Made by a program: the position numbers and the translations under genes. Positions 5,344-15,815 of a stretch of 25,628 bases of DNA are shown one piece after another. Source of the stretch: a virus; IMG/VR virus record IMGVR_UViG_3300047172_000006, positions 1 through 25,628 of that record; one strand, given 5' to 3'. The notes beneath the pieces were generated by a model. That model saw only the letters and a program-made list of their open reading frames with translations, was not told where the DNA came from and ran no database searches. Every line of letters begins with the position of its first letter. Positions within the stretch are counted from its first letter, which is position 1.

Positions 5344-6366
5344 TCAAGGGATTTTTTGACTATGTTCCGATTGAAGGGTTAAGCCTGCGTTACCAGCGTA
5401 CTGTTCAAGTACTCCTGGTTTATGGTGCGCGTAGCGCTGTAGCATCTTAGGGGATGCCCAGCCACCTAGCGTTTGTAAGACTCGCTCAGGCGTACCGTTC
5501 GCCATGTGATAGCTAGCCCAAGCGTGTCGCAAGTCGTGAAAGCGTATGTCACGCAGGCCGGTAGCCTCTTGAGCAGCATTCCAAGGACGTTGGAGGCTTA
5601 CGAGCCGCTTTCCGCCATTAGCCCTACCTTCGGGACCGGTGAACACATATTCGGCTGATATGCCTTTACGTCGCTCTAGGATAGCCAAGGCAGCAGGAGC
5701 TAGCGGGATGCGAATAGGCCGCTTACCTTTAGCTTTCGTAGCCGGGATGACCAGATAGCAGGCGTCTAGGCGTATCCAATCCCATCTCAAGCCACGGACG
5801 TTAGCGGAGCGCAAGCCAGTCAGTACCGCAAACTCGGCTATGTCTCGAGCGTAGGACGGTAGGGCTTCCATGAGGGCGCGGACGTGTGCAGGGTCTACCC
5901 AGCGCTGCTCGGGCTCTGGTAACTCGTACTCTTGGATGTGCGGCGCTTCGCTCAATATCTTTCGCTTGACAAGCAGTTTAAGAACTGAGCGGATAAGAGC
6001 TAAGTGTCGATTCGCTGTGCTGACTGACGCACGTTTAACGACAATCTCTCCATATTGGGCGATTACCTCGGCCGTTAGCTCTTTAACGTCGTGGGCATTA
6101 AAGATCGCAGTAGAGCGGAATATAGACTCGTCCGTATGCAAAGAGCGCTTAGTCACCTTCGCAGAGCGCCATATATTCTGCGCCTCTTTCCAGGAGCACG
6201 CCTTACGCGGTCCACTCAAGAGTTTTTTGATAACATCCGCTCGAGCTTGCTGCTCAACTCGCTTCGCGATTTCTTTGTCCGCCGTGCCCGAACTGCGTCT
6301 AACAGTAACTCCCTTGAGAGTGAATTTAATCTGCCAGTACTCAGAACCTTTTCGCTTGTAGAGCAT
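5344..6366 (-). CDS. int: Tyrosine recombinase / integrase
   Basis: A 340-residue site-specific recombinase that would integrate the phage into the host chromosome. An N-terminal arm-binding-like segment (residues 1-55) and a SAM-like core-binding domain (about 58-140) precede the catalytic domain. Catalytic residues visible are R186 (TGLRSANVRGLRW), the beta-hairpin Lys near 211-213 (TKAKG), H277 and R280 (FHDLRHAWASY), W303 in the usual His/Trp position (GGWAS), and the nucleophile Y312 (RYAH). All are intact. The ATG at 6366 lies inside the excisionase gene and has an AGAGGA sequence about 12 nt upstream. Being transcribed with Xis and upstream of the replication genes is unusual but the frame is intact. 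Confidence 0.96.
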   Translation of the reverse strand: MLYKRKGSEYWQIKFTLKGVTVRRSSGTADKEIAKRVEQQARADVIKKLLSGPRKACSWKEAQNIWRSAKVTKRSLHTDESIFRSTAIFNAHDVKELTAEVIAQYGEIVVKRASVSTANRHLALIRSVLKLLVKRKILSEAPHIQEYELPEPEQRWVDPAHVRALMEALPSYARDIAEFAVLTGLRSANVRGLRWDWIRLDACYLVIPATKAKGKRPIRIPLAPAALAILERRKGISAEYVFTGPEGRANGGKRLVSLQRPWNAAQEATGLRDIRFHDLRHAWASYHMANGTPERVLQTLGGWASPKMLQRYAHHKPGVLEQYAGNAGLTLQSEHSQKIP

Positions 6367-6771: not shown

Positions 6772-6784
6772 TATTGTATAATCT

Positions 6785-6826
6785 ATGCTTATCCGGTTAG
6801 CACCCATGACCGCTATCCGTGGTGGC
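6785..6826. repeat. 42-bp direct repeat, copy A
   Basis: Identical over 42 bp to 7690-7731. On the minus strand it encodes the last residues ATTDSGHGC plus the stop of the PAPS-reductase gene and 12 bases beyond. Its first 15 bases (ATGCTTATCCGGTTA) recur inverted at 7857-7871. Confidence 0.95.
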
Positions 6827-7546
6827 GGATGTCAGACAAATCGGGCCGCACTCAATATCTTCTTCCGGCGTCAAGTCGCCGTGATCCTGCGGAAGCTCGT
6901 CAAGGAATATGCGCATACCGTGCAGACGGCACAGACGCACGCCTAATTCCCGGCTCTGCTTGGCACGCCTATCAAATACTGCCGGGAAATGCCGTCTCAC
7001 ATTTGACCAGTATTTTGGCGAGGTCGCTTTTACGCATCCAATGCAATTGTTGTTTTTGAATCCCAGCCCGTACATAGCTGGCAGTGCTATACCCGCGCGC
7101 CGCAAGGCCGTATAGCAATCTGCCTTTTTGAGGTTATATTTTCGGAGAATCCACCATAAAGACAGTTCCGGGTTATTGGCTTCAAAGTTGGCAATGCGTT
7201 TGCTTTCGTCCGCAGTGAGGCCGAACACATGCAAGTCGTCCGGTCGCTGGTAAGCAAATCGAGGCATTTTTTTCATCTCGACGGTGCAGCGCGCTCCCTT
7301 GACCCCGCTCATGTATCGTGTTTGCTCAAAAACATCGCTGATAGTTCCGTACTTATCGGAATGGATAATCTCTATTTCATGATCGATCCATTCTTCAACG
7401 CGATACAAAAACGCACTGTTGTCAGGGTGTTCTTCCGCCAGCGTGTCGCAGTAAACTACACGGACGTTATCGCCATTCTCCACGGCAATCTTGGCGGCTA
7501 CCGCGCTGGCAGCCCCGCAAGAAAACCAAACGACTGTGCGCCTCAC
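6797..7546 (-). CDS. PAPS-reductase-family (PP-loop) protein
   Basis: A 249-residue phosphoadenosine phosphosulfate reductase-like protein of the type carried by many phages. The ATP pyrophosphatase loop is WFSCGAASAV (S9 to S14). Further family features are VYCDTLAEEHPDN, ARCTVEMKKMPRF, HVFGLTADESKRI, LGFKNNNCIGCVKATSP, GVRLCRL and EEDIECGPIC near the end. Start: GTG 7546 has AGGAGA 7-8 nt upstream and overlaps a 36-residue ORF as GTGA, so I prefer it to the ATG at 7642 that adds 32 unrelated residues. The usual C-terminus CGPxC is followed here by LTSATTDSGHGC, whose end is encoded by the 42-bp repeat and matches a methyltransferase tail. Real substrate in phages is not settled; a role in nucleic-acid sulfur chemistry or sulfur metabolism is possible. 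Confidence 0.92.
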   Translation of the reverse strand: MRRTVVWFSCGAASAVAAKIAVENGDNVRVVYCDTLAEEHPDNSAFLYRVEEWIDHEIEIIHSDKYGTISDVFEQTRYMSGVKGARCTVEMKKMPRFAYQRPDDLHVFGLTADESKRIANFEANNPELSLWWILRKYNLKKADCYTALRRAGIALPAMYGLGFKNNNCIGCVKATSPKYWSNVRRHFPAVFDRRAKQSRELGVRLCRLHGMRIFLDELPQDHGDLTPEEDIECGPICLTSATTDSGHGC

Positions 7547-7653
7547 CGGCCTATCTCCTGTGAAGAAGGCCTGCGAGTCTGAGAGCGTAAGACCACCCGT
7601 TGCGGGCCGCCCGGTTCGGTCGTGACGATGGACCGTTGGCATTTAGCGATCAT
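7543..7653 (-). CDS. 36-residue ORF coupled to PAPS-reductase gene
   Basis: ATG 7653 has a GGGGA Shine-Dalgarno sequence 6 nt upstream and the TGA overlaps the GTG start of the PAPS-reductase gene. The peptide (MIAKCQRSIVTTEPGGPQRV then a basic, Gln/Arg/Ser-rich end) resembles no family I know. Together with the reductase it fills the interval between the 42-bp repeats, so the two may have arrived as one cassette. It may be only a translational coupling leader. Confidence 0.45.
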   Translation of the reverse strand: MIAKCQRSIVTTEPGGPQRVVLRSQTRRPSSQEIGR

Positions 7654-7689
7654 GATTGTTCCCCAGTGGATTGAAAAGTAGATGCTTCC

Positions 7690-7731
7690 ATGCTTATCCG
7701 GTTAGCACCCATGACCGCTATCCGTGGTGGC
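7690..7731. repeat. 42-bp direct repeat, copy B
   Basis: Perfect second copy of 6785-6826. On the minus strand it encodes the C-terminal ATTDSGHGC and stop of the methyltransferase remnant. The bases outside the 42 bp differ between copies. Confidence 0.95.
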
Positions 7732-7836
7732 TCTCACGAACTCCGCCGCGACTTGCGGGACGATGGCATTGCCGTAACCGCGCAGGCGCCCCATGCGGGC
7801 GGCCTTGGGGTCGTTTTCGTTGTAGTAGTTAATCAA
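7702..7836 (-). pseudogene. C-terminal remnant of a phage DNA cytosine methyltransferase
   Basis: Forty-four codons open from a TTG at 7836 (stop codon two codons further upstream) to TAA at 7702. They read YYNENDPKAARMGRLRGYGN followed by AIVPQVAAEFVRA. The stretch RGYGNAIVPQVAAEF is the hallmark C-terminus of phage C5-cytosine methyltransferases, where the conserved GNA(I/V) contacts the core. The catalytic PCQ loop, SAM-binding motifs and target recognition domain are all absent, and there is no ribosome site. I infer a deletion that removed the body of the gene and left the tail between repeats. Confidence 0.8.
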
Positions 7837-7855
7837 GATTTAGTACCTGTGAATG

Positions 7856-8098
7856 TTAACCGGATAAGCATGGTATAATCTTCCGTGCGGTAAGTTTGCG
7901 AAGGCGCTGCGTCTCACCACCGCTGAAATTTCCCGTTTCCCAGTTTTTACCAGCGTCTTTCTTAGAATCAGGCGCTAACTCTAATGCTATCGGTACTGAT
8001 AGCTCTACGTGCGTCATGTTCCCCTCAGTGTGCGTAAAGACTTCGCAGCCTAGCCAAGTGCGAAATGTGTGTGAAGAAATCGCGCCTTGAACGGTCAT
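7856..8098 (-). CDS. Hypothetical protein, 80 residues, C-terminus set by a repeat
   Basis: ATG 8098 overlaps the stop of the DUF7666 gene as ATGA. A second candidate start, ATG 8017 (MTHVELSVPIALELAPDSKK), has a strong GAGGGG site just upstream and may be the true one, or both may be used. The body is hydrophilic and basic near the end (ETQRLRKLTARKI). The final PCLSG and stop are encoded by the 15-bp inverted repeat, so the gene may be truncated by the same rearrangement that damaged the methyltransferase. No family recognised. Confidence 0.55.
   Translation of the reverse strand: MTVQGAISSHTFRTWLGCEVFTHTEGNMTHVELSVPIALELAPDSKKDAGKNWETGNFSGGETQRLRKLTARKIIPCLSG
7857..7871. repeat. 15-bp inverted copy of the repeat end
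   Basis: TAACCGGATAAGCAT is the exact reverse complement of the first 15 bases of the 42-bp repeats at 6785 and 7690. With copy B it brackets the methyltransferase remnant as an inverted repeat separated by 152 bp. Confidence 0.85.
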
Positions 8099-8760
8099 TT
8101 TAGTATCTCATCAAATTTAGTTGCCACGGCGTCTTGCAATCTTTTTCTGTTGGCGGCGAAATAGGCGGAGTAAGTGGCGGCGGAGGTGGCTGCGTAGGCT
8201 GCGTAGGTGGCGGAGTAGGCGTAGGTGGCGGCGGCGGATTGGGCGGCGGCGGCGGCTTGGGCGACGGCGTAGGCGGAGTAGGCGTAGGTGGCGGCGGAGG
8301 TGGCGGAGGCGGCTGCGTAGGCGGCGCGGGATGCGTATTCGGCGGAGGCGGGGGCAGCTGCGTAGGTGGCGGAGGATGCGATGCGCGCTTTTAAAAGTAA
8401 TTCTTTATTCCCTGTTTTCAAAAAATTAACCACCACATCAGGCGCGTTCCATAAGTGTAATACGCTACTTGCTGATTCTCTTGCATCTTTGTGCAGCAAT
8501 TCCATAGCGTCAAATCGCGCAACAATGCGCCGACGGCTGGCACAAATTTTATCTTGCTGCTCTTGAATTTCCCCATCTAGATCCACTAAGCAAAGTATGC
8601 TTCCAGGAGCGTGTTTACACGCATCCGATACATGCCTAGAGGCGTGAAAACCTCTGTTGCAAATAGATATTTTACCGTCAAATTGTAACCACTCACCGTC
8701 CGCAGGGACCGGCGAACCGTCCCTTAGTTTAGTTCCGACAAAATGGTAAGCTCGAATCAT
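8095..8760 (-). CDS. DUF7666-like protein with Ala/Tyr/Ser-rich tail
   Basis: A 221-residue protein. Residues 1-120 match the pattern of the DUF7666-type phage domain as I recall it: MIRAYHFVGTKLRDGSPVPADGEW at the start, then ICNRGFHASRHVSDACKHAPG, LCLVDLDGEI, RRRIVARFDAMELL and LHLWNAPDVVVNFLKTG. From about 128 to 202 it becomes a low-complexity Ala tail with Tyr, Ser and Thr, then ends in a normal segment KRLQDAVATKFDEILK. Ala-rich tails on this head occur elsewhere in phages. The start has CGGAG 9 nt upstream and overlaps the stop of a 24-residue ORF. Biochemical function is unknown. The tail shares 52 identical bases with the Ala-rich gene at the left edge. Confidence 0.8.
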   Translation of the reverse strand: MIRAYHFVGTKLRDGSPVPADGEWLQFDGKISICNRGFHASRHVSDACKHAPGSILCLVDLDGEIQEQQDKICASRRRIVARFDAMELLHKDARESASSVLHLWNAPDVVVNFLKTGNKELLLKARIASSATYAAAPASAEYASRAAYAAASATSAATYAYSAYAVAQAAAAAQSAAATYAYSATYAAYAATSAATYSAYFAANRKRLQDAVATKFDEILK

Positions 8761-15739: not shown

Positions 15740-15815
15740 AGCGGGGTAGCTCAGTTAGCAGAGCAGGCGGCTCATGCCCGCTGTGTCGCAGGTGCAAATC
15801 CTGCCTCCGCTTCCA
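15740..15815 (+). tRNA. tRNA-Met (anticodon CAU)
   Basis: A full 76-nt cloverleaf. Acceptor AGCGGGG (15740-15746) pairs with CTCCGCT (15805-15811) with one G-U. D stem GCTC/GAGC has an 8-base loop. Anticodon stem GGCGG/CCGCT and loop CTCATGC give anticodon CAU at 15773-15775. T stem GCAGG/CCTGC has loop TGCAAAT. CCA is encoded (15813-15815). CAU reads Met, or Ile if C34 is lysidine-modified. Odd features: discriminator base U73 instead of A, an A1-U72 pair, and A18 with G55 in place of the universal G18 and pseudouridine-55 pair. It lies inside the late operon. Confidence 0.93.

What the first reader, a model, noticed from the sequence alone, without database searches (positions are those of the whole stretch)
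6785..7871. Recombining repeats around a PAPS-reductase cassette have swapped C-termini with a dead methyltransferase
A perfect 42-bp repeat at 6785-6826 and 7690-7731 encodes the same tail (ATTDSGHGC, stop) at the ends of two unrelated proteins. The typical family C-terminus of the reductase ends at CGPxC, and the extra tail here comes from the repeat; the second copy ends an N-terminally deleted cytosine methyltransferase. A 15-bp part recurs inverted at 7857-7871, ending the 80-residue gene. The 36-residue ORF plus reductase between the repeats could excise or duplicate by recombination, so this looks like a mobile or recently exchanged cassette next to int/xis.
Basis: partly seen in the sequence, partly recalled or inferred. 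Interest (0 to 1): 0.68.

Follow-up and report, generated by a model that had tools for sequence, protein, structure and literature searches.

The report
Phage transposon carrying single gene cassettes
The repeats are the ends of a small transposon that lost its own transposase and now carries a sulphur-chemistry enzyme gene plus the remains of a DNA methyltransferase gene; sister elements carry other single genes, often DNA-modification enzymes, in unrelated phages.

Summary
The sequence observation is right; the interpretation has to change. The 42-bp repeat and its inverted 'part' are terminal inverted repeats (TIRs) of a transposable element at 6784-7872, flanked by a perfect 8-bp target duplication (GTATAATC at 6776-6783 and 7873-7880). 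The same 23-bp TIR occurs in 55 stretches of public viral contigs. Of 36 inverted TIR pairs, 26 have identical 8-bp flanks, against 0 of 1,260 mismatched pairings. Ten paired elements encode an IS1595-family transposase (closest named relative ISAcr1). About 25, this one included, encode none and carry one or two passenger genes. The tail shared by reductase and methyltransferase is not a swap: it is encoded by the IS left end, and some intact transposases with this end also stop in ...SGHGC*. An intact methyltransferase cassette (L014+L058) ends ...ATMDSGHGC*; the window copy has an internal, not N-terminal, deletion. The left end is duplicated around the reductase, which I read as a gene-capture intermediate (inferred). 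This is a new variant of a known kind: an IS1595-type mobile insertion cassette in phages, with passengers including several DNA-modification enzymes. Transposition itself was not tested.

The parts
6776..6783 (+). Left copy of the 8-bp target-site duplication, GTATAATC
   Evidence: Identical to 7873-7880; 26 of 36 TIR pairs show the same arrangement
6784..6806 (+). Outer left TIR (TATGCTTATCCGGTTAGCACCCA); the first base differs from consensus C
6785..6826 (+). First 42-bp copy = outer left end of the element; read on the minus strand it encodes ATTDSGHGC and stop for the reductase
   Evidence: left-end comparison
6797..7546 (-). Passenger gene: PAPS-reductase-like protein (phrog_424), probable GTG start at 7546 (longest ORF runs to 7642)
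7543..7653 (-). 36-codon ORF overlapping the reductase start as GTGA; no family match
7681..7688 (+). GATGCTTC, the 8 bases outside the internal left end; no partner copy found, possibly a trace of an older insertion site
7689..7731 (+). Internal left end (second 42-bp copy plus the terminal C); encodes the tail of the methyltransferase remnant
7702..7836 (-). Remnant of a C5 cytosine methyltransferase gene with an in-frame internal deletion (44 codons left of about 301)
   Evidence: Compared with the intact cassette L014+L058; phrog_363
7850..7872 (-). Right TIR (inverted copy), CATGCTTATCCGGTTAACATTCA read on the minus strand
   Evidence: right-end comparison
7873..7880 (+). Right copy of the 8-bp target-site duplication, GTATAATC
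7856..8098 (-). 80-codon ORF in whose last codons the element inserted; the TIR now supplies its end
   Evidence: in the joined flanks the insertion lies at 95% of the restored ORF

Best explanation
Shown: 6784-7872 has the anatomy of an inserted transposable element. It has the two distinct ends of an ISAcr1-like IS1595-family insertion sequence and the 8-bp target duplication of that family, but no transposase. It carries a PAPS-reductase-like gene and a dead methyltransferase remnant instead. Autonomous elements with the same ends and an IS1595-type transposase exist in other viral contigs. The shared protein tail corresponds to the C-terminus of the transposase frame, encoded by the IS left end, which supplies the stop codon to whatever gene is placed against it. 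Inferred: (1) such cassettes move when a transposase from an autonomous relative in the same cell acts on their ends in trans. (2) In this element a methyltransferase cassette sat next to a reductase gene with a second identical left end beyond it; a deletion fused the reductase in frame to that left end, and the unit from the right end to the outer left end then transposed together into the end of a small gene near int/xis. The internal left end and the decaying methyltransferase would be leftovers of that capture. (3) Expression comes from read-through transcription of the leftward phage operon; no promoter of its own was shown.
For: Perfect 8-bp duplication around 6784-7872. 26 of 36 TIR pairs with 8/8 identical flanks, 0 of 1,260 control pairings, ninth base at chance. 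Ten paired elements with a transposase 58-79% identical to that of L050, which carries DDE_Tnp_IS1595 and Zn_ribbon_IS1595. ISAcr1: 64.6% identity, related TIR, 8-bp duplication. Transposase C-termini ...SGHGC* in L011, L017, L018 and the intact methyltransferase cassette ending ...ATMDSGHGC*. Same passenger in three contigs and different passengers beside near-identical transposases; flanks unrelated. Removal of the L027 element restores a DUF5131 gene across the join. Both window left ends are closest to the L014 methyltransferase cassette.
Against: No empty site for the window insertion was found and no sister phage. Ten of 36 pairs lack a perfect duplication, including the intact methyltransferase cassette L014+L058. 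The first base of the outer left TIR departs from consensus. Mobilisation in trans is inferred; no transposase was found in this contig. The capture history is one of at least two that fit.
Confidence: 0.92

Rival explanations
1. Homologous recombination between dispersed 42-bp repeats: phage recombinases exchange or excise the 905-bp interval between the two direct copies, and no transposase is involved.
For: The two copies are identical and in direct orientation, so recombination between them is possible.
Against: It does not explain the inverted third copy, the 8-bp duplication around copies 1 and 3, or 26 independent TIR pairs with duplications.
Confidence: 0.04
2. Nested insertion: a reductase cassette was in place first, a methyltransferase cassette inserted into it at GATGCTTC, and recombination between the two right ends removed one of them; the outer left end was then made identical by gene conversion.
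For: Explains why the flank of the internal left end (GATGCTTC) differs from the outer duplication. Two other elements carry reductase-like genes alone (L015, L022). Tandem insertion at one target is seen in L061.
Against: Needs an extra conversion step to make the outer left end identical over 42 bp to the methyltransferase cassette end. This is a rival to the history only, not to the nature of the element.
Confidence: 0.35
3. Integron-like or int-mediated cassettes: the repeat is an attachment site used by the tyrosine integrase encoded at 5344-6366.
For: An integrase gene and an excisionase-like gene lie next to the element, and passengers are gene-sized with a repeat at the 3' end.
Against: Target duplications of exactly 8 bp at many unrelated sites and inverted termini with a DDE transposase in autonomous copies are not products of tyrosine integrases. 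No relative of this integrase was found in the viral contigs.
Confidence: 0.01
4. Assembly artefact: the direct 42-bp repeat was made by misassembly of two phages that share the IS end.
For: Single metagenomic contig; no second copy of this phage was found.
Against: The reductase reads in frame into the repeat, the outer ends carry a perfect duplication, and both ends of the methyltransferase remnant match an independent contig.
Confidence: 0.03

Closest known systems
ISAcr1 (IS1595 family insertion sequence; Acidiphilium and Acidithiobacillus plasmids)
   Same: Transposase of the autonomous relatives 64.6% identical; TIR CTTGCCTATCCGGTTGACTCCCA shares the core TATCCGGTTGAC; subterminal TACTAGAT motif; 8-bp duplication.
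   Different: The window element has no transposase, has another TIR start (CATGCTTATCC), lies in a phage, and carries passenger genes.
Mobile insertion cassettes (MICs, e.g. IS231-MIC231) and transporter IS (PMC3129680)
   Same: Transposase-less element with IS ends around passenger genes, expected to be moved by a cognate transposase in trans.
   Different: Those named there belong to bacterial genomes (IS231-MIC231 is from Bacillus cereus s.l.). Here the ends are of the IS1595 family, the elements lie in viral contigs, and the passenger often uses the stop codon inside the TIR.
IS1595-family IS with passenger genes (Siguier et al. 2009, cited in PMC3129680; paper not readable here)
   Same: Same family; that paper is cited for the frontier between IS and transposons.
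   Different: From the sources at hand I cannot say which passengers were described there; phage-resident single-gene cassettes with DNA-modification genes were not found in the papers searched.
Integron gene cassettes
   Same: Works alike in economy: one gene, little else, with a recombination sequence at the gene end.
   Different: Different enzymology: paired inverted termini and target duplications instead of attC and integrase.
Phage PAPS-reductase-like proteins (phrog_424; PptA, PDB 21fy)
   Same: The cargo protein belongs to this family.
   Different: L003 to L010 encode relatives without these TIRs nearby, so the gene also lives outside the transposon; the window protein has an IS-encoded tail.

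Membership tests
IS1595 family (autonomous relatives of the element) | Transposase with C-terminal DDE_Tnp_IS1595 domain | tested here: met
   L050 E 3.6e-32, L024 E 9.9e-29, above cut-offs; 8 further paired elements by tblastn
IS1595 family (autonomous relatives of the element) | N-terminal zinc-ribbon domain | tested here: met
   Zn_ribbon_IS1595 in L050 and L024
IS1595 family (autonomous relatives of the element) | 8-bp target duplication (PMC8101967) | tested here: met
   26 of 36 pairs exact, ninth base at chance
IS1595 family (autonomous relatives of the element) | TIRs related to those of a named member | tested here: met
   ISAcr1 TIR, 5 and 4 differences over 23 nt from CATGCTTATCCGGTTATCACCCA
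Mobile insertion cassette of the IS1595 family (the window element) | IS ends in inverted orientation with target duplication | tested here: met
   6784-7872 with GTATAATC on both sides
Mobile insertion cassette of the IS1595 family (the window element) | No transposase gene but passenger gene(s) | tested here: met
   No tblastn match to the transposase in the window; reductase-like gene inside
Mobile insertion cassette of the IS1595 family (the window element) | Moved in trans by a cognate transposase | not testable with these tools
   Needs a transposition assay
Integron gene cassette | attC site and integron integrase; no target duplication | tested here: not met
   Inverted TIRs with 8-bp duplications and DDE transposase in relatives
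PAPS reductase (the passenger) | PAPS_reduct domain above the family cut-off | tested here: inconclusive
   21.6 bits against a cut-off of 22.5; phrog_424 E 3e-44; fold resembles PAPS/APS reductases and Fe-S thiolases alike

The most novel reading that the evidence does not exclude
A transposon lineage largely resident in phages works as a gene-cassette exchange system. Gene-sized units consist of a right TIR with a ribosome-binding site close behind it, one open frame, and a stop codon inside or near the left TIR. They carry DNA-modification and other probable anti-restriction genes and are moved in trans between unrelated phages by IS1595-type transposases. The window shows a capture intermediate in which a new gene has been added between two copies of the left end.
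Probability: 0.45. Interest if true: 0.82.

Novelty: new variant of a known kind. Interest (0 to 1): 0.68.

Why it matters
How phages gain single extra genes ('morons') is usually put down to illegitimate or relaxed homologous recombination. This family shows a defined alternative that leaves scars: transposon ends with target duplications around one gene. Among the passengers identified are several kinds of DNA methyltransferase, a Mom-like modifier, three PAPS-reductase-like genes and a TnpB. That suggests, without proving it, that counter-restriction genes are shuffled between phages by transposition. The TIR is a simple search key for finding unknown passenger genes that are likely to be useful to phages. 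It also explains why unrelated proteins share an odd C-terminal tail, a trap for annotation.

Tried and rejected
Exact 39-mer of the repeat in viral contigs: none. Relatives of the 80-aa ORF: none in viral contigs or phages. Relatives of the integrase: none in viral contigs. So presence or absence in sister phages could not be checked. Exact empty-site 24-mer: none. Megablast of the window against phages found little beyond the methyltransferase C-terminus. The transposase has only weak hits in the phage records, 25-27% identity in two faecal records. The integron, int/xis and simple-recombination readings were rejected because of the TIR pairs and 8-bp duplications. The idea that passengers are always co-oriented with neighbouring genes was dropped: 19 same strand against 9 opposite with crude ORF calls is too weak. 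Terminase phrog_2 was found in only 9 of 26 records holding elements, so the viral status of every contig is not proven; the window itself has portal, head, ejection and polymerase genes. My first ORF picking chose antisense frames of several transposases, corrected. No paper describing phage-borne IS1595 cassettes was found, but the library lacks most subscription journals and holds no preprints.

Full report
WHAT WAS REPORTED AND WHAT IS THERE. The 42-bp repeats at 6785-6826 and 7690-7731 are identical and occur nowhere else in the record. A third, inverted copy lies at 7854-7871. An 18-base probe allowing 3 mismatches finds exactly these three sites, against 0.03 expected in shuffles. Both the reductase ORF (6797-7642, minus strand) and the methyltransferase remnant (7702-7836, minus strand) end in ATTDSGHGC-stop. 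The window is a phage: portal, major head, head-closure, DNA-ejection, DNA polymerase, helicase, integrase and excisionase-like genes.

THE REPEAT IS A TRANSPOSON END. A 20-base core of the repeat matched 11 stretches of viral contigs, most with unrelated flanks. In several of them an inverted second copy lies 0.4-1.6 kb away, with an identical 8-bp direct repeat outside both ends. A scan with the 23-base consensus CATGCTTATCCGSTTRNCACCCA gave 55 stretches. Of 36 inverted pairs examined, 26 have identical 8-bp flanks and 28 have at least 7 of 8. Pairing left flanks with right flanks of other elements gave 0 of 1,260 with 8 of 8. The ninth base agrees in 6 of 26, the chance rate, so the duplication is exactly 8 bp. 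In the window the duplication GTATAATC flanks copy 1 (6776-6783) and the inverted copy (7873-7880). The mobile unit is therefore 6784-7872, and copy 2 is internal. For L027, removing the element and one duplication restores a DUF5131 frame, and the Pfam match (E 1.8e-61, residues 14-211) spans the join at residue 172.

WHICH TRANSPOSON. Ten of the paired elements encode a transposase (L050 itself and nine others 58-79% identical to it). L050 and L024 carry DDE_Tnp_IS1595 and Zn_ribbon_IS1595. These domains and the 8-bp duplication are features of the IS1595 family (PMC8101967). The closest named element found is ISAcr1 of Acidiphilium plasmids: 64.6% identity, TIR CTTGCCTATCCGGTTGACTCCCA, duplication GAATCAGC. 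The window has no transposase, so it is a non-autonomous derivative: a mobile insertion cassette in the sense of PMC3129680.

WHERE THE SHARED TAIL COMES FROM. The left end of most autonomous elements overlaps the 3' end of the transposase gene. The transposases of L011, L017 and L018 end ...HPRASGHGC-stop, and several others end ...SGHG-stop. The intact methyltransferase cassette L014+L058 ends ...ATMDSGHGC-stop. Native reductases end shortly after their last cysteine, e.g. L003 CGVLCTTT-stop. So the tail is what this frame reads when it runs into this IS end. The stop codon of the passenger, or of the transposase, often lies 13 or 16 nt from the outer left end, inside the TIR. The start codon commonly lies 27-45 nt from the right end, in several cases with AAGGAG directly behind the TIR.

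THE METHYLTRANSFERASE. L014+L058 holds a 301-aa C5 methyltransferase (PF00145) between these ends. The window keeps its first 13 codons and its last 31, fused in frame. So it is an internal deletion, not an N-terminal one.

THE REDUCTASE. The passenger matches phrog_424 and the solved protein PptA (PDB 21fy, E 1e-57). The library gave no paper on that PptA. The predicted fold (mean pLDDT 80.6) resembles PAPS/APS reductases and Fe-S thiolases. 'PAPS reductase' is thus a family label; the substrate is unknown. Two other elements with target duplications, L015 and L022, carry different members of the same family, while L003 to L010 have no such ends near the gene.

MOBILITY AND MODULARITY. L043 and L054 share 90% identical transposase regions but the DNA upstream of them is unrelated. 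L011/L037 and L035/L038 share right ends and transposases with different DNA between. The same 97-aa passenger cassette occurs in three contigs, whose flanks are unrelated. L061 has two cassettes in tandem sharing one target, with three copies of GAAAGAAC. Passengers identified: D12 adenine methyltransferases (L019, L033), C5 (L014+L058, L025), N4/N6 (L050), other methyltransferases (L066; fragment L031), Mom-like (L056), PAPS-reductase-like (window, L015, L022), TnpB (L052). Many small passengers have no known family. The exact TIR pattern is rare in cellular genomes: 7 stretches in 84,980 species genomes against 55 in viral contigs. The sizes and sampling of the two collections differ, so this is only an indication of phage residence.

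HOW THE WINDOW ELEMENT AROSE (inferred). The two left ends are identical over 42 bp, and both are closest to the methyltransferase cassette L014 (2 mismatches; other left ends compared have 5-11). So both left ends probably come from the methyltransferase cassette lineage. My preferred history is that a reductase gene lay between two such ends, was fused in frame to the outer one, and moved together with the older cassette, whose methyltransferase has since decayed. A nested insertion at GATGCTTC followed by loss of one right end is the main alternative. Neither is proven.

LIMITS. No transposition was observed and no empty site for the window insertion was found. Ten of 36 pairs lack perfect duplications. 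Only 9 of 26 records tested contain the phrog_2 terminase, so not every contig is proven viral. The primary IS1595 paper of 2009 was not readable here, so earlier descriptions of similar passengers cannot be excluded.

Noticed in passing
window 8095-8760 (-): 221-aa ORF with an N-terminal DUF7666 match and an Ala/Tyr/Ser-rich tail encoded by degenerate GC-rich repeats (8146-8379).
   Followed up: no
window 15740-15815 (+): A tRNA-Met gene lies directly behind the portal gene.
   Followed up: no
L052 4200-5335: A TnpB-like gene (OrfB_IS605 and Cas12f1-like TNB domains) is the only gene between IS1595-type TIRs; the 8-bp flanks do not match.
   Followed up: partly
L056 9835-10531: A Mom-like DNA-modification gene fills a 697-bp cassette whose stop codon lies inside the TIR; its right flank GATGCTTC is the same octamer as the flank of the internal left end in the window, perhaps by chance.
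   Followed up: partly
L061 3546-4580: Two different cassettes inserted in tandem at one target, giving three copies of GAAAGAAC.
   Followed up: partly
L042 13871 and 13957; L048 2436 and 2522: The right end of an autonomous element is present twice, 86 bp apart, in two near-identical contigs.
   Followed up: no
L069 480-613; L071 6768-6959; L073 3117-3288: Very short elements (134-192 bp) with these TIRs and 8-bp duplications (7 of 8 in L071) in bacterial genomes, including Nitrotoga and Accumulibacter.
   Followed up: no
window 7543-7546: The stop of the 36-codon ORF and the probable GTG start of the reductase overlap as GTGA, a pattern of translational coupling.
   Followed up: no
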